Under the pieces are notes generated by a model, which was not told the origin of the DNA, ran no database searches, and saw only the letters and a list, made by a program, of their open reading frames with translations. From contig JADFXL010000007.1 of NCBI GenBank assembly GCA_015233585.1, positions 1 to 37,071 on the forward strand: 37,071 nucleotides of DNA, given 5' to 3'. The stretch is from Alphaproteobacteria bacterium (GTDB lineage: Bacteria; Pseudomonadota; Alphaproteobacteria; Rhodospirillales; Rhodospirillaceae). This document shows positions 690 to 32,412 of the stretch, piece by piece. Made by a program: the position numbers and the translations under genes. The stretch's first letter is position 1; every line of letters starts with the position of its first letter.

Positions 690-1234
690 TTAAGGGCGTC
701 GCCCTGGGCCCGGACCACGCTTTGCCACCAGGAGCTGACCAGGACGCGTTGCTGGCGGCTGTCGGCGATGAGATACAAGACAAGGGCTTTGTGCTGGCCA
801 ATGTCGACAAGCTGGTCAACTGGGCGCGCACCGGTTCGATGTGGCCGATGACTTTTGGTCTTGCCTGTTGCGCCATCGAGATGATCCACAGCTATTGCTC
901 ACGGTACGATCTGGACCGCTTCGGCGTGGTGCCGCGTGCGAGTCCGCGTCAATCCGATCTCATCATCGTCTCTGGGACTCTGACCAACAAGATGGCCCCA
1001 GCTTTGCGCAAGGTCTACGACCAGATGTCGGAGCCGCGCTGGGTCATCTCCATGGGGTCGTGCGCCAACGGTGGTGGATATTATCACTACGGCTACTCGG
1101 TGGTGCGGGGCGTGGACCGGATCATTCCAGTCGATGTTTACGTTCCTGGCTGCCCGCCGTCGGCGGAAGCGCTGGTCTACGGCGTCATGCAATTACAGAA
1201 AAAAATCAAACGGACCGGAACGCTTTTCCGCTGA
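680..1234 (+). CDS. nuoB: NADH-quinone oxidoreductase subunit B
   Basis: [69 protein letters not shown] at 680. Confidence 0.95.
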
Positions 1235-1276
1235 TTTCTGGCATCCGCGAAGTCTCAAGCCGACGGGCGAGGAACG

Positions 1277-1894
1277 ATGTCGCAAGCACATCAGGCACTG
1301 CAAGAACTAGGCGAATACCTCCGCGCGGCGCTGCCTCAGGACATTTTGTCGGTGGAGGTGGCGAAAGGGGAACTGGCGCTGGTTGCCCAGCGGTCGGCCA
1401 TTGTCAAGGTTCTCACCTTTCTGCGCGATGACGCGAACTGTCAGTTCAAACAGCTTATGGATGTGTGCGGGGTGGACTTCCCTTCGCGTGAACAGAGGTT
1501 TGAGGTTGTCTACAATCTTCTGTCCCTCAAGCAGAATCAGCGTATCCGGGTGAAGGTCTGCACCGACGAGTCGACGCCAGTACCCTCGGTGTGCGGAGTA
1601 TTCTCCTCGGCCAACTGGTTTGAGCGGGAAACGTGGGACATGTTCGGCATTCCCTTTGCCGATCACCCGGACCTGCGCCGCATCCTCACCGATTATGGGT
1701 TCGAGGGGCACCCGCTGCGCAAGGACTTCCCCCTCTCCGGGTACGTTGAACTGCGCTACGATGACGAGCAGAAGCGGGTGGTCTATGAGCCTGTGAAACT
1801 CACCCAGGAGTTCCGTGGCTTCGACTTCCTCAGCCCGTGGGAGGGTTATGCCGGCCCGCTGCCCGGCGACGAGAAGGCGGAGGGAAAGAAGTAA
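1277..1894 (+). CDS. nuoC: NADH-quinone oxidoreductase subunit C
   Basis: [50 protein letters not shown] is the 30-kDa subunit signature. Confidence 0.95.
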
Positions 1895-1895
1895 C

Positions 1896-3074
1896 ATGGC
1901 GGAAGCCCAGCTTAATACCTACTCGCTCAACTTCGGTCCGCAGCATCCGGCGGCACATGGTGTGTTGCGGCTGGTGGTGGAACTCTCGGGCGAGACGATC
2001 GAACGCGCCGATCCGCATATCGGGCTTCTGCATCGCGGCACCGAAAAGCTGATCGAGAACAAGACGTATGCTCAGGCTCTGCCCTATTTCGATCGGCTGG
2101 ACTACTGCGCGCCGATGGCCGAGGAGCATGTGTTCGCCCTGGCGACTGAAAAGCTGCTGGGGATCGATGTGCCGCGCCGTGCTCAGTTCATCCGCGTTCT
2201 GTATGCCGAGATCAGTCGGTTGCTCAGCCATATCCTTAACGTGACTTCGGCTGCGCTCGACCTCGGCGCCATGACGCCGTTGCTGTGGCTGTTTGAAGAA
2301 CGCGAAATCCTGATGGAGTTCTATGAGCGTGTTTGCGGCGCGCGAATGCACGCCAACTACTTCCGGCCGGGCGGCGTGGTTTATGACATGCCTGCGGGCT
2401 TGGCCGAGGACATCGGCAAGTGGGTGGACCGCTTTCCTTCCATGCTGGACGACATGGAGACCCTGCTGACCGAGAATCGCATTTTCAAGCAGCGGACGGT
2501 GGATATCGGCATCGTGTCGCGGGAACAGGCACTGGACCATGGGTTCGCCGGGCCGGTGCTGCGAGCCTCGGGCGTGCCCTGGGATTTGCGCAAGGCCCAG
2601 CCCTATGATGTCTATGGAGAAATGGACTTTGATATTCCCATCGGCAAGCATGGCGACTGCTATGACCGGTATCTGGTGCGGGTCGAGGAGATGCGCCAGT
2701 CATTGCGCATCATACGCCAATGTCTGGACAAGATGCCGGAAGGGCCGGTTCGGGTTCAGGACCGCAAGATCATGGCGCCGCCGCGCGCCGAGATGAAGAA
2801 GTCGATGGAGGGCCTAATCCATCACTTCAAGCTGTTCAGCGAGGGGTTTCATGTGCCCGCTGGCGAGACCTATTGCGCGGTCGAGGCCCCCAAGGGCGAG
2901 TTTGCGGTCTATCTGATTGCCGACGGCACCAACAAGCCGTATCGCTGCAAGATCCGTTCCCCTGGATATGTCCACCTGTCGGCGATGGATATGCTGACGC
3001 GAGGGCACATGTTGGCCGACATCCCGGCGGTTATCGGCTCCATTGACATCGTTTTCGGTGAGATCGACCGATGA
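1896..3074 (+). CDS. nuoD: NADH-quinone oxidoreductase subunit D
   Basis: [22 protein letters not shown]...[18 protein letters not shown]...[18 protein letters not shown] at 1896. Confidence 0.95.
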
Positions 3075-3694
3075 CCGAGCACGCGAACCATCAAAACGGC
3101 GTTGAACCGGCGACCTTTGCCTTCGCGCCCGATTATCTCCGGCAGGCCGAGCAGTTTATTGCCAAGTATCCGCCCGGCCGGCAGGCCAGCGCAGTGATGC
3201 CGCTGCTGGATCTGGCGCAGCGCCAGCATGGGTGGCTGCCGCGGGCGGCTATCGATACCGTGGCTTCGATGCTGGAGATGCCGCCAATCCGTGTTCAGGA
3301 GGTGGCGACCTTCTACTCCATGTACGTGCACCATCCGGTTGGGGAGCATCACGTTCAGGTCTGCACCAACCTGCCATGCTGGCTGCGAGGGTCGGACGAG
3401 GTGGTGCGTGCCTGTCATGATGTTCTCGGGGTCGATCCCGGCAGCACCACGGCGGATGGAAAGTTTACCGTAGCCGAGGTGGAATGCGCGGGAGCCTGCG
3501 TCAATGCTCCGGTGGTGCAGATTGGCGACGACTATTACGAGGATCTGGACTACGAAACGACCAAAAAGATCCTGGAGGCCCTGAAGCGGGGCGAGAAACC
3601 TCAACCCGGATCGCAAACCGGGCGGCAATGCTCGTGTCCGGCCGGTGGTCCCACCACCCTCAAAAAGGTGGCTCCGGCCACTGGAGGCGCGTGA
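3071..3694 (+). CDS. nuoE: NADH-quinone oxidoreductase subunit E
   Basis: 24-kDa 2Fe-2S subunit: [39 protein letters not shown] overlap with nuoD. Confidence 0.95.
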
Positions 3695-4989
3695 TGCTCA
3701 GTGACAAGGATCGCATCTTTACCAACCTGTACGGTTTTCTGGATCGAGGGTTGGCAGGTGCGCAGGCGCGGGGCGACTGGAGCAACACCAGGGAACTTTT
3801 AGCCAAGGGCCGTGACTGGATCATTGAGGAGATGAAAGGTTCGGGCCTGCGCGGGCGCGGCGGCGCCGGATTTCCCACCGGCCTCAAATGGTCGTTCATG
3901 CCCAAGCAGGAAGCGCCGGGTCGGCCGCACTATCTGGTGATCAACGCCGACGAAGGCGAACCCGGAACCTGCAAGGACCGGGACATCATCCGTAACGATC
4001 CCCACAAGCTTGTCGAGGGCGCGTTGCTGGCGTCCTTCGCCATGGGCAGTCACTGCTGCTATCTGTACATTCGCGGCGAATTCTATCGCGAGGCCCAGGC
4101 CCTGCAAGCGGCCATCGACGAGGCCTATGCCGCCGGTCTGATCGGCCGGAATGCGTGTGGCTCCGGGTGGGATTTTGATTTTTACATCCATCGCGGGGCC
4201 GGGGCCTATATCTGCGGCGAGGAAACGGCTCTCATCAACAGCATCGAGGGCCGCAAGGGGCAGCCGCGTCTGAAGCCGCCGTTTCCGGCCGGTGTCGGTT
4301 TGTGGGGCTGCCCGACCACGGTCAACAATGTTGAGTCCATTGCGGTGACGCCCGAAATCCTGCGGCGGGGCGGGGCGTGGTTTGCGGCGCTGGGGCGGCC
4401 AAAAAACAGCGGCATCAAGGTGTTCTGCATCTCCGGCCACGTCAACAATCCCTGCAACGTCGAAGAAGAAATGGGGATTCCCTTGCGGGAGCTGATCGAG
4501 CGCCATGCGGGCGGGGTGCGTGGCGGCTGGGATAATCTTCTGGCGGTGATACCCGGAGGCTCGTCGGTTCCCGTGCTGCCGAAGGAAATCTGCGACCATG
4601 TGCTGATGGACTTTGATTCGCTGCGCGATGTGCGGTCGGGTCTCGGCACGGCGGCAGTCATCGTCATGGACAAGTCCACCGATATCGTCCGCGCCATCGC
4701 CCGGCTGTCCCGGTTCTATACCCATGAAAGCTGCGGCCAATGCACCCCGTGCCGGGAAGGCACCGGCTGGATGTGGCGGATGATGGAGCGGATGGTGACC
4801 GGGGACGCGGACTTGGCGGAGATTGACGTGCTGGAGGAAGTTAGCCGGCAGATCGAGGGCCACACCATCTGTGCCCTTGGTGACGCGGCAGCGTGGCCGG
4901 TGCAGGGGTTGATCCGGCATTTCCGGCCGGAACTCGAACGGCGCATCAAACAGCGGCAATCGGTGCGAGTGGCGGCACAGGCGGCATAG
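3694..4989 (+). CDS. nuoF: NADH-quinone oxidoreductase subunit F
   Basis: [70 protein letters not shown] at 3694 rather than the ORF-track start. Confidence 0.95.
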
Positions 4990-5005
4990 GGAGGGGTACG
5001 GGTAC

Positions 5006-7069
5006 ATGCCGAAGCTTACCATCGACGGCATCGAGATCGAGGTTGAACCGGGTACTACGGTGCTTCAGGCGGCCGAGCAGCTCGGGATCGAGATTCCTCG
5101 ATTCTGCTATCACGAGCGTTTGTCGATCGCTGGCAATTGCCGCATGTGTCTGGTCGAAGTCGCCCCTGGCCCGCCAAAGCCGGTGGCCTCCTGCGCCATG
5201 CCCACGGCGGACGGCATGATTGTGAAGACCGACAGCCCGATGGTGCGCAAGGCGCGCAAGGGGGTCATGGAATTCATCTTGATCAACCACCCCCTCGATT
5301 GTCCGACCTGTGACCAGGGCGGGGAGTGCGACCTCCAGGATCAGGCCATGCTCTATGGCTGTGACCGGGGACGCTTCCACGAGGAAAAGCGTGGCGTTCA
5401 GGACAAGGATTTTGGCCCGCTCATCAAGAATTTCATGACTCGCTGCATTCTTTGCACCCGCTGTGTGCGCTTTGCCACGGAAGTGTGCGGCGTTCCCGAC
5501 GTGGGGGCCATCGGTCGGGGCGAGCATACGGAAATCACCACCTATCTCGACCGGGCGCTGGCCTCGGAACTGTCTGGGAATCTGGTTGATTTGTGCCCGG
5601 TGGGGGCATTGACCAACAAGCCCTATGCTTTTTCCGCACGCTCGTGGGAGTTGCGCCGAACCGAGTCCATTGACGTGCTTGATGCTATGGGTTGCAATAT
5701 TCGGATAGATACCCGTGGAAGTCAGGTGATGCGGGTTTTGCCGCGCGTCAACGAGGATGTCAACGAGGAGTGGATTTCCGACAAATCGCGCCATGCCTGT
5801 GATGGTTTGCTGCGTCAGCGTCTCGACACACCCTATGTGCGCCGCGACGGCCAGTTGCGGCCTGCCTCCTGGGCGGAAGCGTTTGCGGCGATCGCGGGCA
5901 GGGTCAAGGGGCTGCCGGGCGGTCGTATCGCTGCGATCGCCGGGGATCAGGCCGATTGCGAGTCCATGGTGGCGCTGAAGGATCTGATGACGGCGCTGGG
6001 GTCGGACAATCTGGAATGTCGTCAGGACGGGGCCAGGGTCGATCCGTCGGTTCGGGCTTCCTACCTGTTCAATTCGACCCTGGCCGGGATCGAGGCTGCC
6101 GACGCTCTGCTGATCATCGGCGCCAATCCCCGGTGGGAAGCTCCGGTGCTGAACGCCCGCATTCGCAAGCGATATCTTACCGGCAAGTTGAAGACCGGGG
6201 TGGTTGGGCCACGGATCCATCTGACGTACCGCTATGATCATCTCGGCGAGGGGCCGGCAGCGTTGAAGGAAGTCGCGGCGGGACGGCATCCGTTCTTCGA
6301 GGTGATGAAACACGCACAGCGGCCGATGTTGATTTTGGGCATGGGAGCCCTGACCCGTGCCGATGGTGGCGTCGTGCTGGGAGAGGCGTGCAAGCTGGCC
6401 TACGCAGCGGGTCTGATAAAACCCGACTGGAACGGTTTTAACGTCCTGCATACCGCTGCGGCCCGTGTCGGCGGGCTTGATCTTGGGTTCGTCCCTGGGC
6501 GGGGCCGGGGCTTGGCCGATCTTTTGGCCGATGCCGGGACAGGGGCCATTGAGGTGGTGTACCTGCTGGGCGCGGATGAGATGGATATGACCCGTCTGGG
6601 CAAGGCGTTCGTGATCTATCAGGGGCACCACGGCGACGCCGGGGCGCAACGCGCCGACGTGGTGTTGCCAGGGGCGGCCTATACTGAAAAGGACGCGACC
6701 TACGTCAACACCGAAGGCCGGGTGCAGAACACCCGGATGGCGACTTTTCCACCGGGCGAGGCGCGCGAGGACTGGAAGATCGTCCGCGCGCTGTCCGAAG
6801 TTCTAGGTCATAGACTGCCCTTTGATACGCTGGCCCAGGTTCGGTCGCGACTGGTTCAGGTCAATCCGGTGTTTGCTGGCGGCGAGGTGACCCATGCCGC
6901 CTGGGGGGCCTTCGGGGAATCGGGGACCCTGGATCCGGCGCCGTTTCTGTCGCCAATCCAGAATTTCTATATGACCGACCCGATCAGTCGCGCTTCCGCC
7001 ACCATGGCGGAATGCACCAGGGTCTTTATCATGGCGCGAGAGGCACAGGGGACGGGCACTCATGGATAA
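5006..7069 (+). CDS. nuoG: NADH-quinone oxidoreductase subunit G
   Basis: N-terminal 2Fe-2[35 protein letters not shown]; molybdopterin-type C-terminal region. Confidence 0.95.
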
Positions 7070-8075
7070 CCTGTGGAGCGACTATATCTGGCCGTTGATC
7101 ATCATCGTCGCGGAGATCCTGCTGATCGTGCTGCCGATCATGGGGCTCGTGGCCTACACGACCCTGGCCGAGCGCAAGATCATCGGCGCGATGCAACTGC
7201 GCAAGGGGCCGAACGTCGTCGGACCGTTCGGGTTGTTGCAGCCGCTGGCTGATGGGGCCAAGCTGTTTCTCAAGGAAACCATCATTCCCACAGGGGTTAA
7301 CCGGCCGGTGTTCTTCCTGGCGCCAATGCTCACCCTGATCCTGGCGCTGGTCGCCTGGGCGGTGGTGCCGTTTGCCAAGGGGGTGGTTCTGTCGGATATC
7401 AACGTTGGCATCCTCTATCTGTTTGCCATTTCGTCGCTGGGTGTTTATGGCATCATCATGGCTGGCTGGGCCTCGAACTCCAAGTATGCCTTCATGGGCG
7501 GGCTGCGGTCGGCGGCGCAGATGGTATCTTACGAGGTGTCCATCGGCTTCGTGCTCATTTGCGTGCTGTTGTCGGCGGGGTCGCTCAACCTGACGAAGAT
7601 CGTTGAGGCGCAGCGGACGGTTTGGTACGTCATCCCTCATCTGCCCATGTTTGTCGTGTTCTATGTCTCGGGTCTGGCCGAGTGCGGACGTACGCCGTTC
7701 GATCTGCCGGAAGCCGAGGCCGAACTGGTGGCCGGTTACAATGTCGAATACTCGGCCATGTCCTTCGCCCTGTTTCAGTTGGGCGAGTACGCCAACATGA
7801 TTCTCATGAGCGCCATGGGGACGACCCTGTTTCTGGGCGGGTGGCTGCCGCCGTTCGATATCGCGCCGCTCAACTGGATTCCGGGCTTTATCTGGTTCGT
7901 CATGAAGACGGCGATCCTGCTGTTTGGGTTCATCTGGGTTCGCGCCACGTTCCCGCGTTACCGTTATGACCAACTGATGCGCCTGGGCTGGAAGGTATTC
8001 CTGCCGCTCTCGCTGTTCTGGCTGGTGCTGACGGCGGGTATTCTGGTTTCCACCGGCTGGCTCCCCAACGCGTAA
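7062..8075 (+). CDS. nuoH: NADH-quinone oxidoreductase subunit H
   Basis: [61 protein letters not shown]. Confidence 0.95.
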
Positions 8076-8085
8076 TCGGAGGACG

Positions 8086-8580
8086 ATGAAGATGGCTTTT
8101 CTGGATCGCATCGCGTCCGCCTTTCTCCTGTCCGAGATACGCTCGGGCATGGCGCTGACGCTGCGTTACATGTTCAAGCCGAAAGTGACGATCAACTATC
8201 CCTTCGAGAAAGGGCCGTTGAGTCCGCGATTCCGTGGCGAGCATGTGTTGCGTCGTTATGCCAATGGCGAGGAGCGGTGCATCGCATGCAAACTGTGTGA
8301 GGCTATTTGCCCGGCCCAGGCCATCACCATTGAGGCCGCCCCGCGCGCCGATGGCAGCCGCCGCACCACACGCTACGATCTTGATCTGACAAAGTGCATC
8401 TTTTGCGGTCTGTGTCAGGAGGCGTGCCCGGTCGACGCCATCGTCGAGGGACCAAACTTTGAATACGCCACGGAAACGCGGGAAGAGATGATGTACGACA
8501 AGGCTCACCTGCTTGCCAATGGGGACCGGTGGGAGACAGAAATTGCGATGCGGCTGGAGATCGAGGCGCCGTACCGCTAA
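8086..8580 (+). CDS. nuoI: NADH-quinone oxidoreductase subunit I
   Basis: Two 4Fe-4S motifs [15 protein letters not shown] and [16 protein letters not shown]. Confidence 0.95.
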
Positions 8581-8643
8581 GGGGAAGCGAGAGTCGGCTA
8601 TGAAGTTTACCGTCAAGGCCAATGGGGCCGGGAAGGGGGGCGC

Positions 8644-9258
8644 GTGATCATTCAAACACTCATATTCTACGTGTTCGCCGCCATTACCGTGGCGGGGGGC
8701 GTGATGGTGGTCACGGCTCGTAATCCGGTTCATTCGGTCCTGTTTCTGATTTTGACTTTTTTTACCGCTGCGGGTTTGTTCATCCTGATGGGGGCTGAAT
8801 TCCTGGCCATGGTGCTGGTGGTGGTCTATGTCGGTGCCGTGGCAGTGCTGTTTTTGTTCGTTGTCATGATGCTGGACATAAACTACCTTAAGTTGCGGGA
8901 GGGATTCCTTCAGTACCTGCCAACAGGGGTCGTGATTGGCCTTATTCTGCTGGTGGAGCTGGTGATGATCGCGGGTAAGTGGGTACTCTCTCCCGCTTCC
9001 CTGGAATCGCGCGCGGCTCCGACGCCGATGTTGGTTAAACTCACCAATACGGAGGCGTTGGGACAGGTTCTGTATACCAACTACCTGTATCTGTTTGAGG
9101 CGGCTGGTCTGGTGCTGCTGGTGGCCATGATCGGTGCGATCCTGCTCACCCATCGTGTGCGGCCAGGGGTGCGTCGCCAGAAGATCGTCGACCAGTTGGC
9201 GCGGACCAAGGGTAATTCGCTGGAAATCAAAAAAGTTCCGATCGGGGGAGGGGTCTGA
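8644..9258 (+). CDS. nuoJ: NADH-quinone oxidoreductase subunit J
   Basis: [55 protein letters not shown] start. Confidence 0.95.
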
Positions 9259-9569
9259 TGATGCAGATCGGCCTGGGCCATTATCTGACCGTGGGGGCGA
9301 TTCTGTTTACGCTCGGCGTGTTCGGCATTTTTCTCAACCGCAAGAACGTCATCACTATCTTGATGTCTGTCGAGTTGATGTTGTTGGCCGTCAACATGAA
9401 CATGGTCGCCTTTTCCACGCACCTTCATGACCTTGCGGGACAGGTGTTTGCCCTGTTCATCCTGACGGTCGCGGCGGCGGAGGCGGCAATCGGCTTGGCG
9501 ATCGTGGTTGTGTTCTTCCGCAACCGGGGTTCCATTGAGGTCGAAGACATCAATCAGATGAAGGGTTAG
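9258..9569 (+). CDS. nuoK: NADH-quinone oxidoreductase subunit K
   Basis: [57 protein letters not shown]. Confidence 0.95.
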
Positions 9570-9576
9570 GCCGGCC

Positions 9577-11508
9577 ATGTATGTCGCAGTAGTCTTCCTT
9601 CCCCTGCTTGGCGCCTTCATCGCGGGCCTGTTTGGCCGCACCCTCGGTGATCGCGGGGCGCAACTGGTGACTTGTGCCGGTCTTGGCGGCTCGGCGGCGA
9701 TGGCGGTAGGGATATTTCTGGATGTTGCCGTGGGTGGACATGCCCAAACGCATGAGTTGTTTACCTGGATCAGCTCCGGCACCCTCGATATTACCTGGGC
9801 GTTGAAATACGACACCCTGACCGCCGTCATGTTGCTGGTGGTCACTTTGGTTTCGTTCATGGTGCATGTCTACTCCATCGGCTATATGCACCACGATCCG
9901 TCGGTCCCCCGCTTCATGAGCTACCTGTCGCTGTTCACGTTCTGCATGTTGATGCTGGTGACGGCGGGCAATCTGGTGCAGCTTTTCTTTGGCTGGGAGG
10001 GGGTAGGGCTGTGCTCGTACCTTTTGATCGGGTTCTGGAATGACCGGCCGTCGGCCAATGCGGCGGCAATCAAGGCCTTCGTCGTCAATCGTGTCGGCGA
10101 CTTTGGTTTCGCGCTGGGAATTTTCGGGATCTATTATCTGTTTGGTTCCGTAAACTTTGAGGCCATCTTTGCCGCAGCGCCACAGCACGCCCACGAGACA
10201 GTACAGTTCTTCGGGGTCAGCGGTAATGCGATGACCATCATTTGTTTACTGTTGTTCGTGGGAGCCATGGGCAAATCGGCCCAGATCGGTCTCCACACAT
10301 GGCTTCCCGATGCCATGGAAGGTCCGACGCCAGTATCGGCCTTGATTCATGCCGCGACCATGGTCACGGCGGGTGTGTTCATGGTCGCGCGCATGTCGCC
10401 TTTGTTCGAGCTGTCGGAGACGGCGCTCATGGTGGTGACGGTAGTAGGGGCAACCACGGCCTTTTTTGCCGCCACCATCGGCTGTGTTCAGAACGATATC
10501 AAACGGGTGATTGCCTATTCCACCTGTTCGCAACTTGGGTATATGTTCTTTGCTTTGGGCGTTTCGGCCTATCAGGCGGCGATCTTCCATCTGATGACCC
10601 ACGCCTTCTTCAAGTCGCTGCTGTTCCTTGGCGCTGGTTCGGTGATCCACGCCATGTCAGGGGAGCAGGACATGCGGCGCATGGGTGGAATTTGGCGCCA
10701 CGTCAAGATTACCTACGCTGTTATGTGGATCGGCAGCCTGGCTCTGGCTGGTATTCCGTTCTTCGCAGGTTATTACTCTAAGGACATCATTCTGGAAGCG
10801 GCATTCGGCGCCCATTCGGCGGTGGGTGAATATGCTTACTGGATGGGGATTGCCGCTGCATTCATGACGGCTTTCTATTCCTGGAGACTGTTGCTGATGA
10901 CCTTCCATGGCAAGGCGCATGCCGAGGACAGGGTAATGGCTCATGTCCATGAGTCGCCATTGGTGATTACGGTGCCGCTGATGCTGCTGGCGCTGGGGGC
11001 GGTGTTCTCCGGGATTATCGGCGTCGGAGCTTTTGTTGGCGAGGGACGGGAGGGGTTCTGGCGAGAGGCACTGGTGGTGCTCGGTTCTCACCCTGCGCTT
11101 GAAGCGGCTCATCATTCGCCATGGTTGGTCAGTCTGCTGCCCATTATTGTCGGGGCAGGCGGGATTGCGCTTGCCTATGGGTTTTACGTATACATGCCGG
11201 CAGTTCCTCTCGGGTTGGCCCGGGCTCTTCCTGCCGTGCATCGCTTTCTGCTCAACAAGTGGTACTTTGACGAAGCCTATGACTTTCTGTTTGTTCGGCC
11301 AGCGTTCGCCCTTGGGCGTGGGCTGTGGAAGGATGGCGACGGGGCCGTGATCGATGCGGTTGGGCCAGACGGAATCGCGGCGGCTACTCGCTCCGTGGCG
11401 AGGCGCATGGCCGCGTTGCAGTCCGGCTACGTCTACCATTATGCCTTCGCCATGATCGCGGGTGTTACCGCGTTCGTGAGCTGGTACATGTTCCTTTACC
11501 AAGGCTGA
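9577..11508 (+). CDS. nuoL: NADH-quinone oxidoreductase subunit L
   Basis: [57 protein letters not shown]. Confidence 0.95.
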
Positions 11509-11515
11509 GGCGGCA

Positions 11516-13045
11516 ATGACGGACTGGCACCTGCTTTCTCTGGTAACGTTCCTGCCGCTCCTCGGCGCGGTGTTCATTCTCACCGTTCGCGGCGATGAAG
11601 CGGTGGTGGCGCGCAATGCCCGCAATGTCGCGCTGCTCACTTCCAGCGTCACCTTCCTGTTATCGCTGGGGCTGTGGTTCAACTTCGATCCCACCACAGC
11701 CAATTTCCAGTTTCAGGAATCGGCGCCCTGGCTGCCGGGGCTGGGGATCAATTATCGCATGGGGGTGGATGGAATTTCCGTCCTGTTCGTGCTGTTGTCC
11801 ACCCTGCTGACCCCGCTGTGCATCCTGTCAAGCTGGGAGGCGATCAAGGTTCGGGTCAAGGAGTATATGATCGCCTTTCTGATCCTTGAGACCATGATGG
11901 TGGGGATGTTCTGCGCCCTGGACCTGTTCGTTTTTTACATGTTCTTCGAAGGCGTCCTGATCCCCATGTTTGTGATTATCGGGGTGTGGGGGGGGCCGCG
12001 CCGGGTCTATGCCGCATTCAAGTTCTTTCTCTACACGCTTCTGGGATCGGTGCTGATGCTGCTGGCCCTGCTTGCGATGTATTTCGCGGCGGGTAACACC
12101 AGTGACATCCCGACTTTGCTGGCGTTCAACTTCCCGGCCAGTATGCAGCCCTGGCTATGGCTGGCCCTGTTTGCTTCGTTCTCGGTGAAGGTGCCGATGT
12201 GGCCGGTCCATACCTGGTTGCCCGATGCCCACGTCGAGGCGCCGACCGCCGGTTCGGTGATTTTGGCCGGGGTGTTGCTGAAGATGGGAGCGTACGGGTT
12301 CGTGCGGTTTTCGGTGCCGATGTTGCCGGAAGCCACGATAACATTCACGCCGCTGATCTATACGCTTTCGGTGATTGCCGTGATCTATACCTCGCTGGTG
12401 GCTCTGGCGCAGGAAGATATGAAGAAGCTGATCGCTTATTCGTCGGTGGCCCACATGGGCTTTGTTACCATCGGCCTGTTTGCGATGACCCAGCAGAGCG
12501 TTGAAGGCGCTCTGTTCCAGATGCTCAGCCACGGCGTAGTGGCTGGGGCGCTGTTCCTTTGCGTCGGCGTGGTCTACGACCGGATGCACACCCGCGAGAT
12601 TGCCGCCTACGGCGGGTTGGTCGGCCGGATGCCGCGTTATGCGCTGGTGTTCATGGTCTTCATGCTGGGTTCGGTCGGATTGCCGGGAACCAGCGGGTTT
12701 GTCGGTGAGTTTCTGATCCTGCTCGGCGTGTTCCAGGTCAACACCTGGGTTGCCCTGTTCACGACTACCGGCGTGGTTTTGGGGGCGGCATACATGCTAT
12801 ATCTGTACCGGCGGATCATCTTCGGCAAGCTGGTGCGACCCGAACTCAAGGGTATCCTGGACCTGAGCCTACGCGAGGTCGTCATTTTCGCGCCGCTCGT
12901 GATCCTGGTCCTGTGGATGGGGGTGTATCCGACGCCATTTCTTGAAATGTTTCATGCCTCGGTCGCCGCATTGATTGAAAAGAACGAGATCGCCAGGGCC
13001 GCGACGACTGCCGCGACATCTGCCCTGGCGTTGGCGGTTCATTGA
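11516..13045 (+). CDS. nuoM: NADH-quinone oxidoreductase subunit M
   Basis: [75 protein letters not shown]. Confidence 0.95.
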
Positions 13046-13064
13046 GGGATTAGGGGGAAAGCGC

Positions 13065-14516
13065 ATGATGTATGAATTGCCGAATCTTGTTCCGGCGCTT
13101 CCCGAGATCCTGCTGGCTGTGGCGGCTTTGGGGCTGCTGATGGTTGGGGTGTTTCGTAAAAAGGATGCGACCGGTTTTGTCGGCGGGCTTGCGGTGGCGG
13201 CTCTGGTTGTCGCGGGGATTGTCGAGGTCAATCTGGCGAGGGTTCCCGTCGTCACCACCCTCGGCGGCATGTTTGTGCTGGATGGGTTTGCCGTTTTTGT
13301 CAAGGCGCTGGTTTTGCTGGCAGCCGTGCTCACCGCCATTATGTCGCTGTCGTGGTTGCGCCAGGAAAAGCTGGGTCAGTTTGAATTTCCTGTCCTGTTG
13401 ATATTTGCCACGCTTGGCATGATGATGATGGTTTCGGCCAATGATCTTATGGCGTTGTATCTGGGGCTGGAACTTCAGAGTTTGTCGCTATATGTTCTTG
13501 CCGCCTATCACCGCGATAATCTCCGCTCCACCGAGGCTGGCCTGAAGTATTTCATGCTGGGGGCGCTGGCGTCCGGTCTGCTGCTGTTTGGCGCTTCTTT
13601 CATCTATGGTTTTACAGGTGCCACGGGTTTTGATGCCATTGCCAAGGCCCTTGGGGATGGGGCTTCGGTGCCTGTCGGTGTCACGGTGGGCATTGTCTTT
13701 TTGCTGGCGGGGCTGGCATTCAAGATTTCTGCCGTGCCCTTCCACATGTGGACTCCGGATGTTTATGAGGGGGCGCCAACTCCGGTGACCGCCCTGTTCG
13801 CGGTGGGGCCGAAAATTGCCGCTCTGGCGCTGCTGATCCGGGTCATGGTAGGGCCGTTTGGTCATCTGGTCGAGCAATGGCATCAGGTCGTGGTAGCTTT
13901 GTCGCTGGCTTCCATGGTGTTGGGCGCGTTTGCCGCCATTCACCAGACCAATATCAAACGACTGATGGCCTATAGCTCCATCGGTCACGTAGGTTATGCG
14001 CTGATCGGTGTTGCCGTGGGCAATGCGGCTGGTGTGCGCGGGGTGCTGGTTTATCTGGCTATCTATCTGTTCATGAATATCGGTACCTTTACGGTCATCC
14101 TCTCCATGCGGCAGCGGGGCCGCATGGTCGAGCAGATCGAAGATCTTGCCGGTTTGTCGAAGTCAAATCCATTGATGGCGCTGGCGCTGGCGATCTTTAT
14201 GTTTTCGATGGCGGGCATTCCACCGCTTGCCGGATTTTTTGGCAAACTCTATGTCTTCATCGCCGCTATACAGGCCCACATGTATACACTGGCTGTCCTC
14301 GGTGTGCTGACTAGCGTCGTGGGCGCGTACTATTATCTACGAATTGTGAAGGTCATGTATTTCGATGAACCGGCCGATAGTTTCGATCGACCTATTGGCC
14401 GTTCCATGACGTTTATTCTAACCGGAACAAGTCTGGTTATTCTGCTATTTTTTCTGTTCCCCGAGATGCTTCTGACGGGAGCGGAAACCGCAGCGGCCTC
14501 TTTGTTCCACGGATGA
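13065..14516 (+). CDS. nuoN: NADH-quinone oxidoreductase subunit N
   Basis: [79 protein letters not shown] at 13065. Confidence 0.95.
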
Positions 14517-23237: not shown

Positions 23238-23271
23238 ACCCCCGTTTGTGATTCAAATTGGAGTGGGTACC

Positions 23272-24432
23272 ATGATCGACTCCCTGGAAATCAACGGGTA
23301 CCGATGCTTTGACCGGTTTACGATGAGCGGGTTGGGGCGGGTTAATCTACTAGTAGGCACGAATAACAGCGGCAAGACATCGGTGTTGGAGGCCCTGTAC
23401 CTTTTGACAAGTGAGGGAGACCCCTATGCTCTGGGACGTATCCTGGCGGATCGTGGGGAGCAGTTTGATAGGGAACAGTCTTCTGGGCCAGCGTCGCGCC
23501 CCGAGTATGAAGTCGAGTATGAAGTTTGCCATTTGTTTCGTGGCCATGAAATCGAAGAAGGATCGAAATTTACTATATCTGCGAGTTTTAAGAACGATAT
23601 TCAAATGAAATACGACTTTAAACTGAAGTTACTAAAATTACTATCCAACGAACGCATTAATTTTGAAGGACTCCATGGCGATCCTCTAGGATTGATTGTG
23701 TCAATAGACGGTCCACCAGAAGACGGACGACTAGACCCAAACGTGTTAATGATTTCGTTAACCCAACGCGGGGGTATTTATCTTGATACCGATAAATGGT
23801 TTTCTCGGCGTGTATTTCAACGAGGAAATCCCAAAAGATCATATTCAGTTCAGTACATTTCAACTAGATCTCTTTCCTCCAAAGAACTTTCTCTTATGTG
23901 GAACGGTATTGTTCTTACAGACGAAGAAGAAAGCGTACTTTTGGCGCTTAGAATTATCGAACCAAAAATTAAAAGGGTTGCCGTCGCTACGGCTTTAAAT
24001 AAATGGAGAGACCCTGTATCGCGGGGCGGCTTCAAGGTCCGACTCACTGATGTCGAAACCCCCGTCCCCATTGGCAGCCTGGGCGATGGAATGTGGCGGA
24101 TGCTGGCGATAGCAATCGCCTTAACCCAGGCCAAAGACGGTTACCTGCTGATCGACGAGATCGACACCGGCTTGCATCACACCGTCATGGCCGATATGTG
24201 GAAAATGATTGCGCAGACGGCCAAGGAATTGAACGTTCAGGTATTCGCCACGACGCACAGTTATGATTGCGTGACCAGTCTGGCCGCGATCTGTCGCGAC
24301 GACGTTGAAAATGACAATCAGGTGACCATCCAGCGAATCAAACCTGGTCGCGAAAAATCTGTTTCGTTTAATGAAGCGGAAATCATCATCGCGGCGGAAC
24401 ATCACGCGGAACAACATATCGAGGTTCGCTAG
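23272..24432 (+). CDS. OLD/AAA_21-type (RecF/SMC-like ABC) ATPase, candidate sensor of a two-gene defence-like module
   Basis: MIDSLEINGYRCFDRFTMSGLGRVNLLVGTNNSGKTSVLEAL (Walker A), SLGDGMWRMLAIAIAL (signature), GYLLIDEIDTGLHH (Walker B), VFATTHSYDC (H-switch). ATG at 23272 preferred over GTG 23248. Confidence 0.88.
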   Translation: MIDSLEINGYRCFDRFTMSGLGRVNLLVGTNNSGKTSVLEALYLLTSEGDPYALGRILADRGEQFDREQSSGPASRPEYEVEYEVCHLFRGHEIEEGSKFTISASFKNDIQMKYDFKLKLLKLLSNERINFEGLHGDPLGLIVSIDGPPEDGRLDPNVLMISLTQRGGIYLDTDKWFSRRVFQRGNPKRSYSVQYISTRSLSSKELSLMWNGIVLTDEEESVLLALRIIEPKIKRVAVATALNKWRDPVSRGGFKVRLTDVETPVPIGSLGDGMWRMLAIAIALTQAKDGYLLIDEIDTGLHHTVMADMWKMIAQTAKELNVQVFATTHSYDCVTSLAAICRDDVENDNQVTIQRIKPGREKSVSFNEAEIIIAAEHHAEQHIEVR

Positions 24433-24434
24433 CC

Positions 24435-25076
24435 ATGGCCGCGCTCAATTCAAAACTTCTTGTGGTCGAAGGTGAGGATGATAAATATGCTGTCATCCAT
24501 TTGATGCAAGCGCATGTCGATTTGGGCGATAAAGAATCCGATAGGAAAGTCAATATTGAGGTGGCGAAAGGTGTCGATAAAATCTTTAAAATAGAATTTA
24601 TTTCCGTTAGGCTAAAATTGAACGATATCCTCGGCATCGTCATTGACGCCGACGAAGATTTTGCTTCTCGTTGGTCAGGTTTGCGTAAGCTGTGCTTGGT
24701 TGACTTTCCGAACCTTCCCGAGGAACTTCCAGAAAGGGGTCTGGTGGCGCAGAACGAAGATGGCAAGCGCCTGGGTGTCTGGATCATGCCCGACAACAAG
24801 TCGCGGGGAATGCTGGAAACCTTCTTGCAGTTTCTCGTGCCAGAATCAGAGGAACCAATCTGGCAAGAGGCACAGTGTGCCGTGGTCGAGGCGAAAGCCA
24901 TCGGAGCGAAATGCCATGCGCCCCATATGGATAAAGCTAATGTCTACACCTGGATGGCATGGCAAGACCCGCCTGGGCAGAGTTTCGGCAGAGCGTTGAT
25001 GCAAAAAATCCTGGATCCTCACGCCAATTCCGCAAAACCATTCATCGCCTGGTTCCGTGAGTTGTTCGAGATTTAG
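24435..25076 (+). CDS. DUF3226-like TOPRIM-fold protein, candidate effector partner of the ATPase
   Basis: SKLLVVEGEDDKYAVIHLM (TOPRIM Glu motif), ILGIVIDADEDFASRW (DxD motif), LGVWIMPDNKSRGMLETFL; starts 2 nt after the ATPase stop. Confidence 0.75.
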   Translation: MAALNSKLLVVEGEDDKYAVIHLMQAHVDLGDKESDRKVNIEVAKGVDKIFKIEFISVRLKLNDILGIVIDADEDFASRWSGLRKLCLVDFPNLPEELPERGLVAQNEDGKRLGVWIMPDNKSRGMLETFLQFLVPESEEPIWQEAQCAVVEAKAIGAKCHAPHMDKANVYTWMAWQDPPGQSFGRALMQKILDPHANSAKPFIAWFRELFEI

Positions 25077-26590: not shown

Positions 26591-27271
26591 TTACGGAATT
26601 ATGAATGTTTCGTGACATATCGAGGTTTGTGCATTGCGAATGGCCGCGATGTTGTCCGCGTAGCTGTTTCCTTTGAACACGGCGCTGCCCGCGACCAGCA
26701 CGTCGGCACCGGCGGCGACGCACTGTGCCGCTGTTTGCGGGGTGATGCCGCCGTCAACTTCCAGCTCGATGGCGCGGTTGCCGATCAGCGTTCGGATGCG
26801 GCGGATCTTCTCAAGCTGGGCGTCAATGAAGACCTGGCCGCCAAAACCAGGGTTGACGGACATGACCAGGATTAAATCCACCCGGTCGAGTACATGGTCA
26901 AGAATGGAGACCGGGGTGGCGGGATTGAGCGACACACCGGCCTTTTTGCCCAACGAGCGAATGTATTGGAGGCTGCGGTCAAGGTGGCGGTCGGCCTCGG
27001 CGTGAACGGTGAGAATGTCGGCCCCGGCATCGGCGTAGTCCTTCAGGAACGGCTGGGCCGGGTCGATCATCAGGTGAACGTCAAAGATCTTTCGGGTGTG
27101 GGGCCGGATGGCCTTGATTACGACGGGACCGATGGTCAGGTTGGGCACGAAATGTCCATCCATCACGTCGATGTGGATATAGTCGGCCCCGGCGGCGTCA
27201 ATGGCGCGCACTTCCTCGCCCAGGCGGGAGAAGTCAGCGGAAAGAAGGCTGGGGGCGATTTTGATGGACAT
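26591..27271 (-). CDS. rpe: ribulose-phosphate 3-epimerase
   Basis: [63 protein letters not shown]. Confidence 0.95.
26601..26618 (-). promoter_or_regulatory. candidate Pho box upstream of phoU-phoB
   Basis: Minus strand ATGTCAC-GAAA-CATTCAT, compared with CTGTCAT-N4-CTGTCAT; TAATAT follows 7 nt downstream; 83 nt upstream of phoU ATG. Confidence 0.35.
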
Positions 27272-27316
27272 CTTTCCCTCTCACGTCAACGCGGGACTAT
27301 CGCCCCGGACCCCAAT

Positions 27317-27360
27317 CTGGGGCTATGCCCCAGACCCCCTTTTTATTTAATAAAAAAGGG
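27317..27360 (-). terminator. double hairpin terminator between cbbS and rpe
   Basis: CTGGGGC-TAT-GCCCCAG (27317-27333) and CCCTTTTT-ATTTAATA-AAAAAGGG (27337-27360). Confidence 0.7.
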
Positions 27361-27438
27361 CTCGGAGCCGCGTGCCAGAGACACGTCTTCGGCGTCACGC
27401 CCCGATCGGGTGAGGCGGAAGCCAGCAACGTCCCCCAA

Positions 27439-27798
27439 TCAAGCCGTCACAGGGCCGCGATAAATCACGAACGCCGTGCCCTGCGACTGTTTGGCGTTGT
27501 CATAGCCGACCAGACGCACATGGTGCCTGGGGTGTGCGATATGGCAGGCTTCGGCCTCGGCCAGGATGCGTTCGATGTTGGTCTCGCCGAACATCGGCAG
27601 TTTCCACATGTACCAGTAATGATCGAAGGCGTTCTCCGGCTCGGAGTGTTCGATCGCCGGGTTCCATTCTTTGGCCACGATGTAGGCGACCTGCTGGCGA
27701 ATTCGGGTGTTGTCCATCTCCGGCAGGTAGGAGAATGTCTCGAACTTGCGGCTGGAGGGGTCGCTAAGGCTGGAGTGGTAATCTTTCATCTCGATCAT
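27439..27798 (-). CDS. cbbS: ribulose bisphosphate carboxylase small subunit (form I, IAq-like)
   Basis: [29 protein letters not shown]...[31 protein letters not shown]...[32 protein letters not shown] before ATG at 27798. Confidence 0.93.
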
Positions 27799-27814
27799 CC
27801 GGCAACCCCCTTGG

Positions 27815-29233
27815 TTAATCGTGGACGACATCCAAAGTATCCACGGTGTCGAACTCGAACTTGATTTCCTTCCAGGTCTCCATAGCCATCTTCAACTCGG
27901 GGCTGGTTCTGGCGGCGGCGGCGAGGATGTCCTTGCCTTCCTTTTCCAGGTCGCGGCCCTGGTTACGGGCTTCGGTGCAGGCTTCCAGCGCGACGCGGTT
28001 GGCGCTGGCGCCGGCGGCGTTGCCCCAGGGGTGGCCCAGGGTGCCGCCGCCGAACTGCATGACCGAGTCGTCGCCAAAAATACCGACCAGAGCCGGTATG
28101 TGCCAGACGTGGATGCCGCCGGAGGCGACGGGAAACAATCCCGGCATGGCGCCGTAATCCTGATCGAAGAATAGGCCGCGACTGCGGTTTTCCCGGATAT
28201 AGCGCTCGCGCATAAGGTCAATCCAGCCCAGGGTTGCTTCGCGGTCGCCTTCCAGCTTGCCAACCACCGTGCCCGCGTGCAGGTGGTCGCCCCCGGACAG
28301 GCGCAGACATTTGGTGAGAACGCGGAAATGAATGCCGTGGTGGCGATTGCGGTCGACCACGGCGTGCATGGCCCGGTGGATATGCAGCAGCATCCCGTTC
28401 TCGCGGCACCAATTGGCCAAGCCGGTATTGGCGCAAAATCCGGCGGTAAAGAAGTCGTGCATGATGATGGGCGCACCGATTTCCTTGGCGAACTCGGCGC
28501 GTTTGTACATTTCCTCCGGCGTGGGGGCGGTGACGTTGAGGTAATGGCCCTTGCGCTCGCCGGTTTCCGCTTCGGCCTTGTCGATGGCCTCCATGACGAA
28601 TTCGAAGCGATCGCGCCAGCGCAGGAATGGCTGGGAATTGACGTTCTCATCGTCCTTGGTGAAATCGAGTCCGCCGCGCAGGCATTCATAGACGGCGCGG
28701 CCATAATTCTTGGCCGACAGGCCGAGCTTGGGTTTGATGGTGCAACCGAGCAGGGCGCGGCCGTACTTATTCAATTTGTCGCGTTCGAGCTGAATGCCGT
28801 TGGGCGGTCCGCCACAGGTCATGACATAGGCACGGGGGAACCGCACGTCTTCGAGCCGCAAGGCCCGAATAGCCTTGAAGCCGAAGACGTTGCCAACCAG
28901 GGAAGTAAGGACGTTGACGACCGAGCCTTCCTCAAACAGGTCGATCGGATAGGCGATGAACGCATAAAAACAGGTATCATCGCCGGGTACGTCCTCAATG
29001 GCGTAGGCGCGACCTTTATAGTAATCAAGGTCGGTCAGCAAATCAGTCCATACCGTCGTCCAGGTACCGGTTGAGGACTCGGCGGCTACCGCTGCGGCAC
29101 ATTCCTCACGGGTCATTCCCGGTTGAGGCGTGATTTTGAAGCAAGCCAGAAAATCCGTATCCTTCGGAGCGTATTGGGGCTCCCAATACGTTTGCCGGTA
29201 TTCCTTGACGCCAGCATTGTACTGCTTGGCCAT
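27815..29233 (-). CDS. cbbL: ribulose bisphosphate carboxylase large subunit (form IA)
   Basis: [86 protein letters not shown]. True start 29233; the ORF-track extension to 29566 overlaps fba and is artefactual. Confidence 0.96.
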
Positions 29234-29267
29234 CGTTATTTCTCCTGGTTGGTCAGGGTTCGCCGTC

Positions 29268-30332
29268 CTAGTTGATCTTGGGGTCCAGGGTGCCGTCCTT
29301 GTAACGCTTGGCCATGTCGGACAGGGCGATCGCTTTGATCTTGGAAGCACGGCCAGCGGCGCCGAATTGCTGGTAACGGTCCTCGCAAACCTTTTGCATG
29401 GCGACCATGGCGGCCTTGTTGAAGGTGCGGGGGTCGAATTCGGCCTTTTTCTCGTTGGCGATCTTGCGCCAGGTGCCGGTGACGGCCATGCGGCAATCGG
29501 TGTCGATGTTGATCTTGCGCACGCCGTGCTTGATGCCTTCGACGATTTCTTCCACCGGCACGCCATAGGTCTGGGGCATGGCGCCGCCGTTATTGTTGAT
29601 CAGATCCTGGAGTTCCTGCGGCACCGACGACGAGCCGTGCATCACCAGATGGGTGTTGGGCAGCTTTTCGTGAATTTTCTTGACCACGCTCATGGCAAGA
29701 ATGTCGCCGGTCGGTTTGCGGGTGAACTTGTAGGCGCCGTGCGAGGTGCCCATGGCGATGGCCAGCGCGTCGACCTTGGTCTTCTTGACGAATTCGGCAG
29801 CCTGATCGGGATCGGTCAGGAGCTGGCTGTGGTCGAGCGTGCCCTCGAAGCCATGGCCGTCTTCCTTGTCGCCCTTACCGGATTCAAGCGAACCCAGGCA
29901 GCCCAGTTCCCCTTCCACGGAAACGCCGACCATGTGGGCGATATTGACCACATCTTTGGTGACGTTGGAGTTGTAGTCAAAGCTGGCGGGGGTCTTGCCG
30001 TCGGCTTCGAGCGAGCCGTCCATCATCACGGACGAGAAATTGGCGGTGATGGCCGTGAGGCACGTATCAACGCTGTTGCCATGGTCCTGATGCATACACA
30101 CCGGGATGGTGGGGTACATCTCGATCACGGCCAGGATCATGTGCTTGATCATGATGTCGCCGGCATAGGAACGAGCGCCACGGCTCGCTTGCAGGATCAC
30201 GGGCGAATCGGTTTTCAACGCCGCGTTCATGATCGAGAGAACCTGTTCCATGTTGTTCACGTTGAACGCAGGCATCCCGTAGCTGTATTCGGCGGCATCG
30301 TCGAGTAGCTGGCGCATTGAGATCAAGGACAT
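29268..30332 (-). CDS. cbbA: class II fructose-bisphosphate aldolase
   Basis: [87 protein letters not shown]. Confidence 0.95.
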
Positions 30333-30368
30333 CGTAGTTTCCCTCTTGCGGATTTAAGATTTTACGAA

Positions 30369-32375
30369 TTAAAGACGTGCCTCAACGGCGGTCACGACGG
30401 CCTCCGCCGTGATCCCGAAGTGCTCATACAGTTTAGCAGCCGGAGCCGAAGCACCAAAGCCCCTCATGCCGATGACGGCACCATGTAACCCCACATAGCG
30501 TTCCCAGCCAAACGTTCCGAGCGCCTCCACCGCCACCCGGATGACGCCTTTATGGCCCAATCCCAGCACTTGCGCGCGGTATTCGGCCGTTTGCTCGTCG
30601 AACAGCTCCCAGCTTGGCATCGACACCACGGCGGCGGGAACCCCCCTGGTGGTTAGCATTTCGCGGGCTTTCAGGGCGATTTCCACCTCGGAACCGGTGG
30701 CAAGGATCGTGACTCGGCGCGGGCCACCTTCGGCCTCGCAGAGGATATAGGCACCCCGGGCGGATAAATTCTCGTCGGTATGATCGGTGCGCACGGTCGG
30801 CAAATTCTGGCGTGACAGGGATAGCACCGATGGGCGGGTCTGATTCGACAGGGCCAGGGCCCAGCACTCGGCGGTTTCCACCGGATCGCACGGACGAAAG
30901 ACCAGCACGTTGGGCATGGCGCGCAACGATGCCAGGTGCTCGACCGGCTGGTGGGTGGGACCGTCTTCGCCCAGGCCGATGGAGTCGTGGGTCATGACGT
31001 AGATGACGCGCTGGTGCATCATCGCCGACAGACGGATCGCCGGCCGGCAATAGTCGGCGAACACCAGAAAGGTGCCGCCATAGGGAATGAAGCCGCCATG
31101 GAGTGCCAGCCCGTTCATGGCCGCCGCCATGCCATGTTCGCGCACGCCATAATGAATATAGCGGCCTGACGGGTCGGTGGGGGTGACGATTGGCATGTTT
31201 TTGACGAGGGTGAGGTTGGAACCCGTGAGGTCGGCGGAACCGCCCACCATCTCCGGCACCGCTGGCACCAGGACTTCGAGCGCCATTTCCGAAGCCTTGC
31301 GGGTGGCGACCTTGGGCCGCTGTGTCGAGAGTTCGCGCTTGAAGGCGTTGAGGGTCGCCGCCAGTCCGCCTGGCAGCTCGCCCGCATTGGTGCGGAGAAA
31401 TTCGTTGCGCCGGGTCTCGGGAAGGTCAAGGAGCCGCTGTTGCCAGGACTCCCGTTCGGCGGCGCCACGGCGGCTGGCCGCGCGCCAGGCTGCCAGGACC
31501 GGCTCGGGCACCTCGAACGGGGCGTGGTTCCAGCCCAGCGCGGCGCGGGCGCCAGCGATTTCCTTGTCGCCCAGCGGTGAGCCGTGGGTTTTCTCGGTGC
31601 CGGCGAGGGTGGGGGCGCCGTAACCGATGACGGTACGGCAGGCGATCAGGGTCGGTTTGTCGCTGCCGTGGGCCGTTGTAATGGCCGCAGCAATTGCTTC
31701 CGCGTCGTGGCCGTCCACGCGAAGGGTGGCCCACTGGGAGGCCTCGAACCGTTTGATGTTATCATCCGAGGTCGCCTTTGCGGTATCGCCGTCGATGCAG
31801 ATATGGTTGTCGTCCCACAACAGGATCAACTTGTTCAGTTTCAGGTGGCCAGCCAGGGAAATGGCTTCCTGGCTGACGCCTTCCATCAGGCAGCCATCGC
31901 CGGAGATGACATAGGTGTGATGGTTGACGATGGCATCGCCATGGCGGGACGCCAGCATTTTCTCCGCCAGTGCGAATCCCACGGCGGTGGCAAGACCCTG
32001 GCCCAGGGGTCCGGTGGTCATTTCCGCTGCCAGGGTTTGGCCATACTCGGGGTGACCTGCGGTGCGGCTGCCGAACTGGCGGAAGTTCCTGACCTGATCA
32101 ATATCCATGTCGGGATAGCCGGCCAGATAGGCAAGGCCGTAGAGAAGCGCCGAACCGTGTCCGGCCGACAGGATGAAGCGGTCGCGATCGGGCCAGCGCG
32201 GGTTGGTGACATCGAACCGGAGGAAACGGGAAAACAGAACCGTTGCCACATCGGCCATGCCCATGGGCATTCCAGGATGGCCGGAATTGGCTTTCTGCAC
32301 CGCGTCGACCGCGAGGAAGCGGACGGCGTTGGCCATATCGTGGTGGCTGACCTTCGAGAGGGTCTGCATCGTCAT
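30369..32375 (-). CDS. cbbT: transketolase
   Basis: [101 protein letters not shown]. Confidence 0.95.
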
Positions 32376-32412
32376 CGGCGGGGGTATCCTTGCCTTACAG
32401 GGTAGCAATGAC

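What the first reader, a model, noticed from the sequence alone, without database searches (positions are those of the whole stretch)
23272..25076. Two-gene ATPase + DUF3226/TOPRIM cassette: candidate uncharacterised split-OLD/PARIS-like defence module
Seen: an ABC-type AAA ATPase with intact Walker A (GTNNSGKTS), signature (SLGDGMWRMLAIA), Walker B (LLIDEIDTGLHH) and H-switch (ATTHS), followed after 2 nt by a small protein with TOPRIM-like E (VVEGEDD) and DxD (VIDADED) motifs. Known families: OLD nucleases fuse such an ATPase to a TOPRIM nuclease; PARIS (AriA/AriB, DUF4435) and RloA/RloB (AbiL) split them into two genes. Inference: this pair has the same logic with a DUF3226-type effector, and I am not aware of a detailed functional description of that combination.
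Basis: partly seen in the sequence, partly recalled or inferred. Interest (0 to 1): 0.8.

Follow-up and report, generated by a model that had tools for sequence, protein, structure and literature searches.

The report
Two-gene ATPase–TOPRIM phage-defence candidate
Two adjacent genes encode a switch-like ATPase and a small predicted nucleic-acid-cutting enzyme; the same pair rides on phages, small plasmids and a known defence operon in other bacteria, so it is probably an anti-phage module of a type that is catalogued but not yet tested.

Summary
An ABC-type ATPase (23272-24432) with intact motifs is followed after 2 nt by a DUF3226 protein (24435-25076).

A confident AlphaFold2 model of the DUF3226 protein has the PARIS effector AriB and an OLD nuclease as its two best PDB matches, although no match is below E 0.001. 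It carries the active-site residue pattern known from Class 2 OLD nucleases. In a sample of about 100 relatives from several phyla the two genes are adjacent, apart from record breaks and frame-broken copies.

In other lineages the pair sits inside an HmaABC defence operon, at cargo sites of temperate phages (once beside a restriction-modification gene), and on plasmids as small as 4 kb. This supports a split-OLD-like defence module.

It is not PARIS, AbiL, Gabija or a retron. It is also not new to databases: both genes match PADLOC's candidate PDC-M38 (A and B), and I found no paper on it. The window copy is a low-GC cassette between housekeeping genes. A test of mostly cyanobacterial neighbourhoods showed no defence enrichment, so the defence case rests on the mobile relatives. 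Trigger, substrate and activity are inferred, not shown.

The parts
23272..24432 (+). ABC-type (OLD/AbiLi-like) ATPase, 386 aa; alternative in-frame GTG start at 23248
   Evidence: Pfam AAA_15 and AAA_21; PADLOC PDC-M38A 287.6 bits, AbiLi 167, AriA 92.6
23356..23379 (+). Walker A GTNNSGKT (residues 29-36)
   Evidence: G29, G34 and K35 invariant in the 12-member alignment
24076..24090 (+). ABC signature SLGDG (residues 269-273)
24145..24159 (+). Walker B LLIDE (residues 292-296)
24250..24261 (+). H-switch TTHS (residues 327-330)
24421..24429 (+). Conserved C-terminal tripeptide E-V-R of the ATPase; its codons GAG-GTT also form a Shine-Dalgarno-like GAGGT (24421-24425) 9 nt before the second start codon
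   Evidence: [ED]-[VIMT]-R then stop in 97 of 99 pairs; codon counts
24435..25076 (+). DUF3226 Toprim-fold putative nuclease, 213 aa
   Evidence: PF11536 201.9 bits; PADLOC PDC-M38B 186.4 bits; AF2 pLDDT 92.1, pTM 0.88; Foldseek top hits PARIS AriB and TsOLD
24468..24482 (+). Toprim glutamate E12 and acidic D16 (EGxxD), positions of BpOLD E400 and E404
   Evidence: E12 in 76 of 78, D/E16 in 78 of 78; roles from PMC6755086
24645..24653 (+). DxD motif D71-A-D73, positions of BpOLD D455 and D457
   Evidence: D71 in 78 of 78; D73 in 71 of 78, N in 7
24774..24797 (+). DUF3226 signature G-V-W-I-M-P-D-N
   Evidence: W116 and P119 invariant
24816..24818 (+). E128 in the first helix of the helical part, proposed counterpart of BpOLD E508
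   Evidence: 78 of 78; helix 127-132
24933..24935 (+). K167, proposed counterpart of catalytic K562 of BpOLD
   Evidence: 78 of 78; helix 162-175

Best explanation
The pair is a split, OLD-like, probably abortive anti-phage module, catalogued but unvalidated as PADLOC PDC-M38. Proposed mechanism: the ATPase oligomerises through its ABC heads, acts as sensor and switch, and holds the DUF3226 Toprim protein in an inactive complex. A phage-triggered change in the ATPase frees or activates the Toprim enzyme. That enzyme uses a two-metal active site (E12, D16, D71, D73, E128) and K167 to cut nucleic acid, and so stops phage production. I lean to RNA, probably tRNA (about 55%), over DNA (about 40%). 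Shown by computation: intact motifs, a confident predicted fold with the right family as top matches, a conserved active-site residue set, near-obligate pairing, a closely coupled second gene start, defence and mobile contexts of relatives, and foreign base composition of this copy. Inferred: complex formation, trigger, substrate, nuclease activity and host arrest.
For: Both genes match the PADLOC pair PDC-M38A/B (287.6 and 186.4 bits). The AF2 model of DUF3226 is confident, and its two best PDB matches are 8ux9_A of the PARIS complex (the chain is named AriB) and OLD nuclease 6p74, with topoisomerases and DnaG among the weaker ones. Acidic and lysine residues match the two-metal set of Class 2 OLD. 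The related ATPase gene directly precedes nearly every DUF3226 gene examined; distance matrices of the two proteins correlate at r=0.90, 0 of 999 permutations. A read-through ATPase-DUF3226 chain of a relative folds as one body (pLDDT 91.4, pTM 0.87), with OLD, Gabija GajA and retron-Eco8 as best matches. Contexts: HmaA - PDC-S06 - [pair] - HmaB - HmaC in L135; next to a phage baseplate gene in L176 and L178, with a restriction-modification gene upstream in L178 and an integrase in L177; downstream of P2-type tail genes in a Plesiomonas record; only recognisable cargo of a 4,071-bp Klebsiella plasmid, and on Citrobacter and Acinetobacter plasmids. Turnover: 3 of 61 relatives (own genome included), 15 of 299 of the phylum, 76 of 149 in a cyanobacterial order with 0-7 copies and several broken ones. 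The window copy has 48.5% GC against 59.3% elsewhere.
Against: No experiment exists. Genes near 16 pairs, 13 of them cyanobacterial, show no excess of PADLOC matches over random genes of the same genomes. The window copy lies between lolD and phoB, and copies in some Nostocales keep shared neighbours, as a resident gene would. Foldseek support for DUF3226 is weak in absolute terms (E 0.0065 and 0.016, TM up to 0.40), and no match is below E 0.001. The read-through chain forces the two proteins together, and its overall TM to OLD is only 0.40-0.44. Window proteins are only about 25-30% identical to the phage and plasmid relatives.
Confidence: 0.72

Rival explanations
1. A host-function OLD-type module without a defence role, comparable to archaeal Cran1, kept for chromosome or cell-cycle functions in some lineages.
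For: Cran1 is an OLD ATPase with a cell-cycle rather than antiviral role (PMC12796447). The window copy and many chromosomal copies stand alone among housekeeping genes. Nostocales copies share a chromosomal site and the tree follows cyanobacterial groups.
Against: Present in only half of the sampled cyanobacterial order, in 0 to 7 copies and with broken copies. Carried by phages and tiny plasmids and embedded in HmaABC. Foreign GC in the window.
Confidence: 0.12
2. A toxin-antitoxin or plasmid-maintenance pair: DUF3226 is a toxin that the ATPase neutralises.
For: Found on plasmids of 4-14 kb and larger, two of them also carrying a BrnT/BrnA toxin-antitoxin pair next to it; close coupling of the two genes would give fixed stoichiometry.
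Against: The ATPase is far larger than usual antitoxins and keeps all catalytic motifs. In PARIS, the nearest analogue, deletion of either gene was non-toxic (PMC9122126). Chromosomal and phage copies exist as well, where maintenance is no obvious benefit.
Confidence: 0.1
3. A variant of PARIS or AbiL that uses the same trigger and substrate, with DUF3226 as a diverged DUF4435 or RloB.
For: The ATPase matches AbiLi (167 bits) and AriA (92.6 bits) models; AriB is the top Foldseek match of DUF3226.
Against: No DUF4435, AriB or AbiLii match for DUF3226 in Pfam or PADLOC. Profile comparison with seven DUF4435 proteins gives 11.5% probability over 67 columns of Toprim core only.
Confidence: 0.06

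Closest known systems
PADLOC PDC-M38 (A and B), a candidate system
   Same: Both genes match, in the same pairing.
   Different: Nothing that I tested. PDC-M38 is a placeholder name; the library describes PDCs as unvalidated (PMC12988326).
PARIS (AriA + AriB, DUF4435)
   Same: Two-gene ABC ATPase plus Toprim effector; AriB is the top structural match of DUF3226.
   Different: The effector is DUF3226, not DUF4435; only the Toprim core aligns. Trigger and substrate are unknown here.
AbiL (AbiLi + AbiLii) / RloA-RloB
   Same: The ATPase is AbiLi-like (167 bits).
   Different: The second protein has no AbiLii or RloB match.
OLD Class 1-3 nucleases (P2 Old, Gabija GajA, retron-associated)
   Same: ATPase plus Toprim; same set of proposed metal-binding residues and lysine as Class 2 OLD.
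   Different: Two genes instead of one; no gajB-type helicase or reverse transcriptase next to the window pair.
Cran1 (OLD Class 5, archaea)
   Same: OLD-type ATPase and Toprim domains; not in a defence locus (PMC12796447).
   Different: Cran1 is one fused protein with a cell-cycle role.

Membership tests
PADLOC PDC-M38 | PDC-M38A ATPase | tested here: met
   287.6 bits, E 5e-86, residues 1-378 on profile 1-379 of 383
PADLOC PDC-M38 | PDC-M38B next to it | tested here: met
   186.4 bits, E 1e-55, residues 6-212; 2 nt apart
PADLOC PDC-M38 | Demonstrated anti-phage activity | not testable with these tools
   PDCs are described as unvalidated (PMC12988326); no held paper contains 'PDC-M38'
PARIS | AAA_15/AAA_21 ATPase | tested here: met
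   Pfam scores above the thresholds used by Rousset et al.
PARIS | DUF4435 (AriB) partner | tested here: not met
   only DUF3226 matches; profile comparison 11.5%
AbiL / RloAB | AbiLi-type ATPase | tested here: met
   second-best PADLOC family, 167 bits
AbiL / RloAB | AbiLii / RloB partner | tested here: not met
   no such match at E up to 1 in Pfam or PADLOC
OLD nuclease (Classes 1-3) | ATPase and Toprim in one polypeptide | tested here: not met
   separate ORFs in the window and in the relatives inspected
Gabija (OLD Class 2) | UvrD/Rep-like helicase directly downstream | tested here: not met
   the next ORF is a PhoB-like response regulator on the other strand, judged from its sequence
OLD-type Toprim nuclease | Toprim fold | tested here: met
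   AF2 pLDDT 92.1; top Foldseek hits AriB and TsOLD, probability 0.93 and 0.98, but E above 0.001
OLD-type Toprim nuclease | two-metal active-site residues | tested here: inconclusive
   residues and helix positions match BpOLD; distances in the model could not be measured
Defence system (general) | occurs with other defence genes | tested here: inconclusive
   HmaABC embedding and phage cargo beside restriction-modification; no excess in the mostly cyanobacterial sample

The most novel reading that the evidence does not exclude
DUF3226 modules are a separate split OLD class, in which an AbiLi-like ATPase uses its conserved C-terminal E-[V/I/M]-R tail to hold a DUF3226 Toprim RNase or DNase, with a trigger and substrate unlike those of PARIS.
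Probability: 0.35. Interest if true: 0.65.

Novelty: new member of a known kind. Interest (0 to 1): 0.45.

Why it matters
If confirmed, a domain of unknown function present in at least five bacterial phyla (hundreds of species genomes) would become a Toprim nuclease effector, and a placeholder entry of a defence catalogue would get a mechanism. It would also add a further solution to how ATPase-Toprim pairs are kept safe and then switched on, a question that a review of the OLD family lists as open (PMC10568477). Very small natural carriers, such as a 4-kb plasmid whose only recognisable cargo is the pair, make a direct test cheap.

Tried and rejected
Defence-island enrichment: 128 genes around 16 pairs (13 of them cyanobacterial) against 122 random genes of the same genomes showed no excess at E<=1e-20. 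A second set of 121 genes around pairs of other lineages held an Hma operon and DpdF-like, MzaA-like and reverse-transcriptase genes, but had no matched control. I fetched DUF4435 loci as a possible positive control but used them only for the profile comparison. Conserved third gene: none; only the ATPase recurs at a fixed place. Phage records in INPHARED: no match with the window protein; in IMG/VR most phage relatives appeared only with a query from the proteobacterial subfamily. E. coli genomes: no match with two related pairs at DNA level. Mobility signals at the window copy: no tRNA, no flanking repeat pair, no Rfam family. The idea that the conserved E-V-R tail is only a by-product of an embedded Shine-Dalgarno: GAG is used in 86 of 100, which favours it in part, but the Arg codon varies freely and Acinetobacter pairs keep E-V-R with GAA-GTA, so protein-level selection remains likely. 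That the tail docks on DUF3226 is not supported by the read-through model, whose linker region has low confidence. Empty site: proS-lolC-lolD is conserved in relatives without the pair, but phoB was not found next to lolD there, so no clean empty site was found.

Full report
Observation. The ATPase runs from ATG 23272 to 24432 (386 aa) and the second gene from 24435 to 25076 (213 aa), 2 nt apart. Walker A, signature, Walker B and H-switch are intact, as are the Toprim-like E and DxD motifs. Pfam names the second protein DUF3226 with 201.9 bits.

Already catalogued. PADLOC's best models for the two proteins are PDC-M38A (287.6 bits) and PDC-M38B (186.4 bits); the ATPase next resembles AbiLi (167 bits) and, further down, AriA. 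A recent survey describes PDCs as putative systems found by 'guilt-by-embedding' and still unvalidated (PMC12988326). No held paper contains 'DUF3226' or 'PDC-M38'. The library lacks most subscription papers and nearly all preprints, so 'undescribed' is true only within it.

Fold and active site of DUF3226. AF2 with 78 sequences gave pLDDT 92.1 and pTM 0.88. The two best PDB matches were the PARIS complex chain 8ux9_A (named AriB) and Thermus OLD 6p74, with probability 0.93 and 0.98; topoisomerases and DnaG appear further down among weaker matches. E-values are modest (0.0065 and 0.016) and none is below 0.001, so the match is to a diverged Toprim core with its own helical part. Class 2 OLD uses E400, E404, D455, D457, E508 and a lysine K562 (PMC6755086). 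DUF3226 has E12 (76 of 78), D/E16 (78), D71 (78), D73 (71, else N), E128 (78) and K167 (78) in the same order, with the same spacing inside the two Toprim motifs and with E128 and K167 in helices of the helical part. I could not measure distances in the model. In RNase M5 the residue at the place of E404 is an Asp (D31), as in 61 of the 78 DUF3226 proteins; this and the AriB match are why I lean to RNA.

One functional unit. In the loci examined the related ATPase gene directly precedes DUF3226 on the same strand, apart from genes cut by a record end or broken frames. Sequence-distance matrices of the two proteins correlate with r=0.90 and no permutation reached it; this is not corrected for shared species history. 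The ATPase ends in [ED]-[VIMT]-R in 97 of 99 pairs. Its GAG-GTN codons often double as a Shine-Dalgarno for the second gene, but the free variation of the Arg codon and GAA-GTA examples suggest the peptide itself is also kept. A read-through translation of a natural relative (L036), in which both ORFs are in frame, folds with pTM 0.87 and finds OLD, GajA and retron-Eco8 first. The construct forces proximity, and overall TM is only 0.40-0.44, so it supports compatibility, not a proven OLD-like arrangement.

Contexts. In L135 the pair lies inside HmaA - PDC-S06 - pair - HmaB - HmaC. In two phage contigs it sits near the same kind of baseplate gene, once next to a restriction-modification gene; in a third it is near an integrase; the pair and its E-V-R ending are intact in all. 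In a Plesiomonas record it follows P2-type tail genes, and it is on Acinetobacter, Citrobacter and Klebsiella plasmids, the smallest of 4,071 bp. By contrast, mostly cyanobacterial neighbourhoods show no defence excess, some Nostocales copies share a chromosomal site, and lone copies occur inside glycogen-type or sulphate-assimilation gene groups. The window copy is of this lone type, between lolD and phoB, with 48.5% GC against 59.3% for the rest and lower GC3.

Distribution. 15 of 299 genomes of the phylum (12 over the cut-off), 3 of 61 genomes of the close-relative set and 76 of 149 genomes of a cyanobacterial order have DUF3226, the last with up to 7 copies and several with internal stops or fragments. 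A pattern scan found 513 matching stretches with a relative in a collection of 84,980 species genomes, a lower bound. Within the sampled tree the window protein groups with Acidobacteriota and Rhodopila, away from the phage and plasmid subgroups, so evidence from those contexts transfers to it by family resemblance, at about 25-30% identity.

Verdict. The most likely reading is a split-OLD-like defence module. It works like PARIS in outline, but is not PARIS, AbiL, Gabija or a retron by tested features. It belongs to the already catalogued, unvalidated PDC-M38.

Noticed in passing
L135 (G077:C262), 634-14382: HmaA - PDC-S06 - [ATPase, DUF3226] - HmaB - HmaC: two candidate modules embedded in one Hma operon.
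   Followed up: partly
window 24421-24429 and relatives: The ATPase gene's last codons encode a near-invariant E-[V/I/M]-R tail and at the same time carry the Shine-Dalgarno of the next gene.
   Followed up: partly
L178 2874-5816: Restriction endonuclease/methyltransferase-like gene upstream of the pair in a temperate-phage contig, next to a baseplate gene: a likely defence hotspot.
   Followed up: no
L023 (4,071-bp Klebsiella plasmid): ColRNAI-type plasmid whose only recognisable cargo is the ATPase-DUF3226 pair; the second gene spans the record start and is not annotated in the table.
   Followed up: partly
L021 2014-3175: An Acinetobacter haemolyticus plasmid has the ATPase gene split in two ORFs upstream of an intact DUF3226 gene.
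   Followed up: no
A3 rows L028, L036, L045, L050, L077, L086, L090: Seven relatives, mostly Planctomycetota, have D-A-N instead of D-A-D in the Toprim motif.
   Followed up: no
window 26591-32408: rpe, form I RuBisCO-like subunits, fructose-bisphosphate aldolase and transketolase: a Calvin-cycle cluster, ordinary (named from the sequence, not scanned).
   Followed up: no
L074 6371-8845 and L096 2940-5405: Two Desulfobulbaceae pairs lie next to a DpdF-like helicase gene.
   Followed up: no
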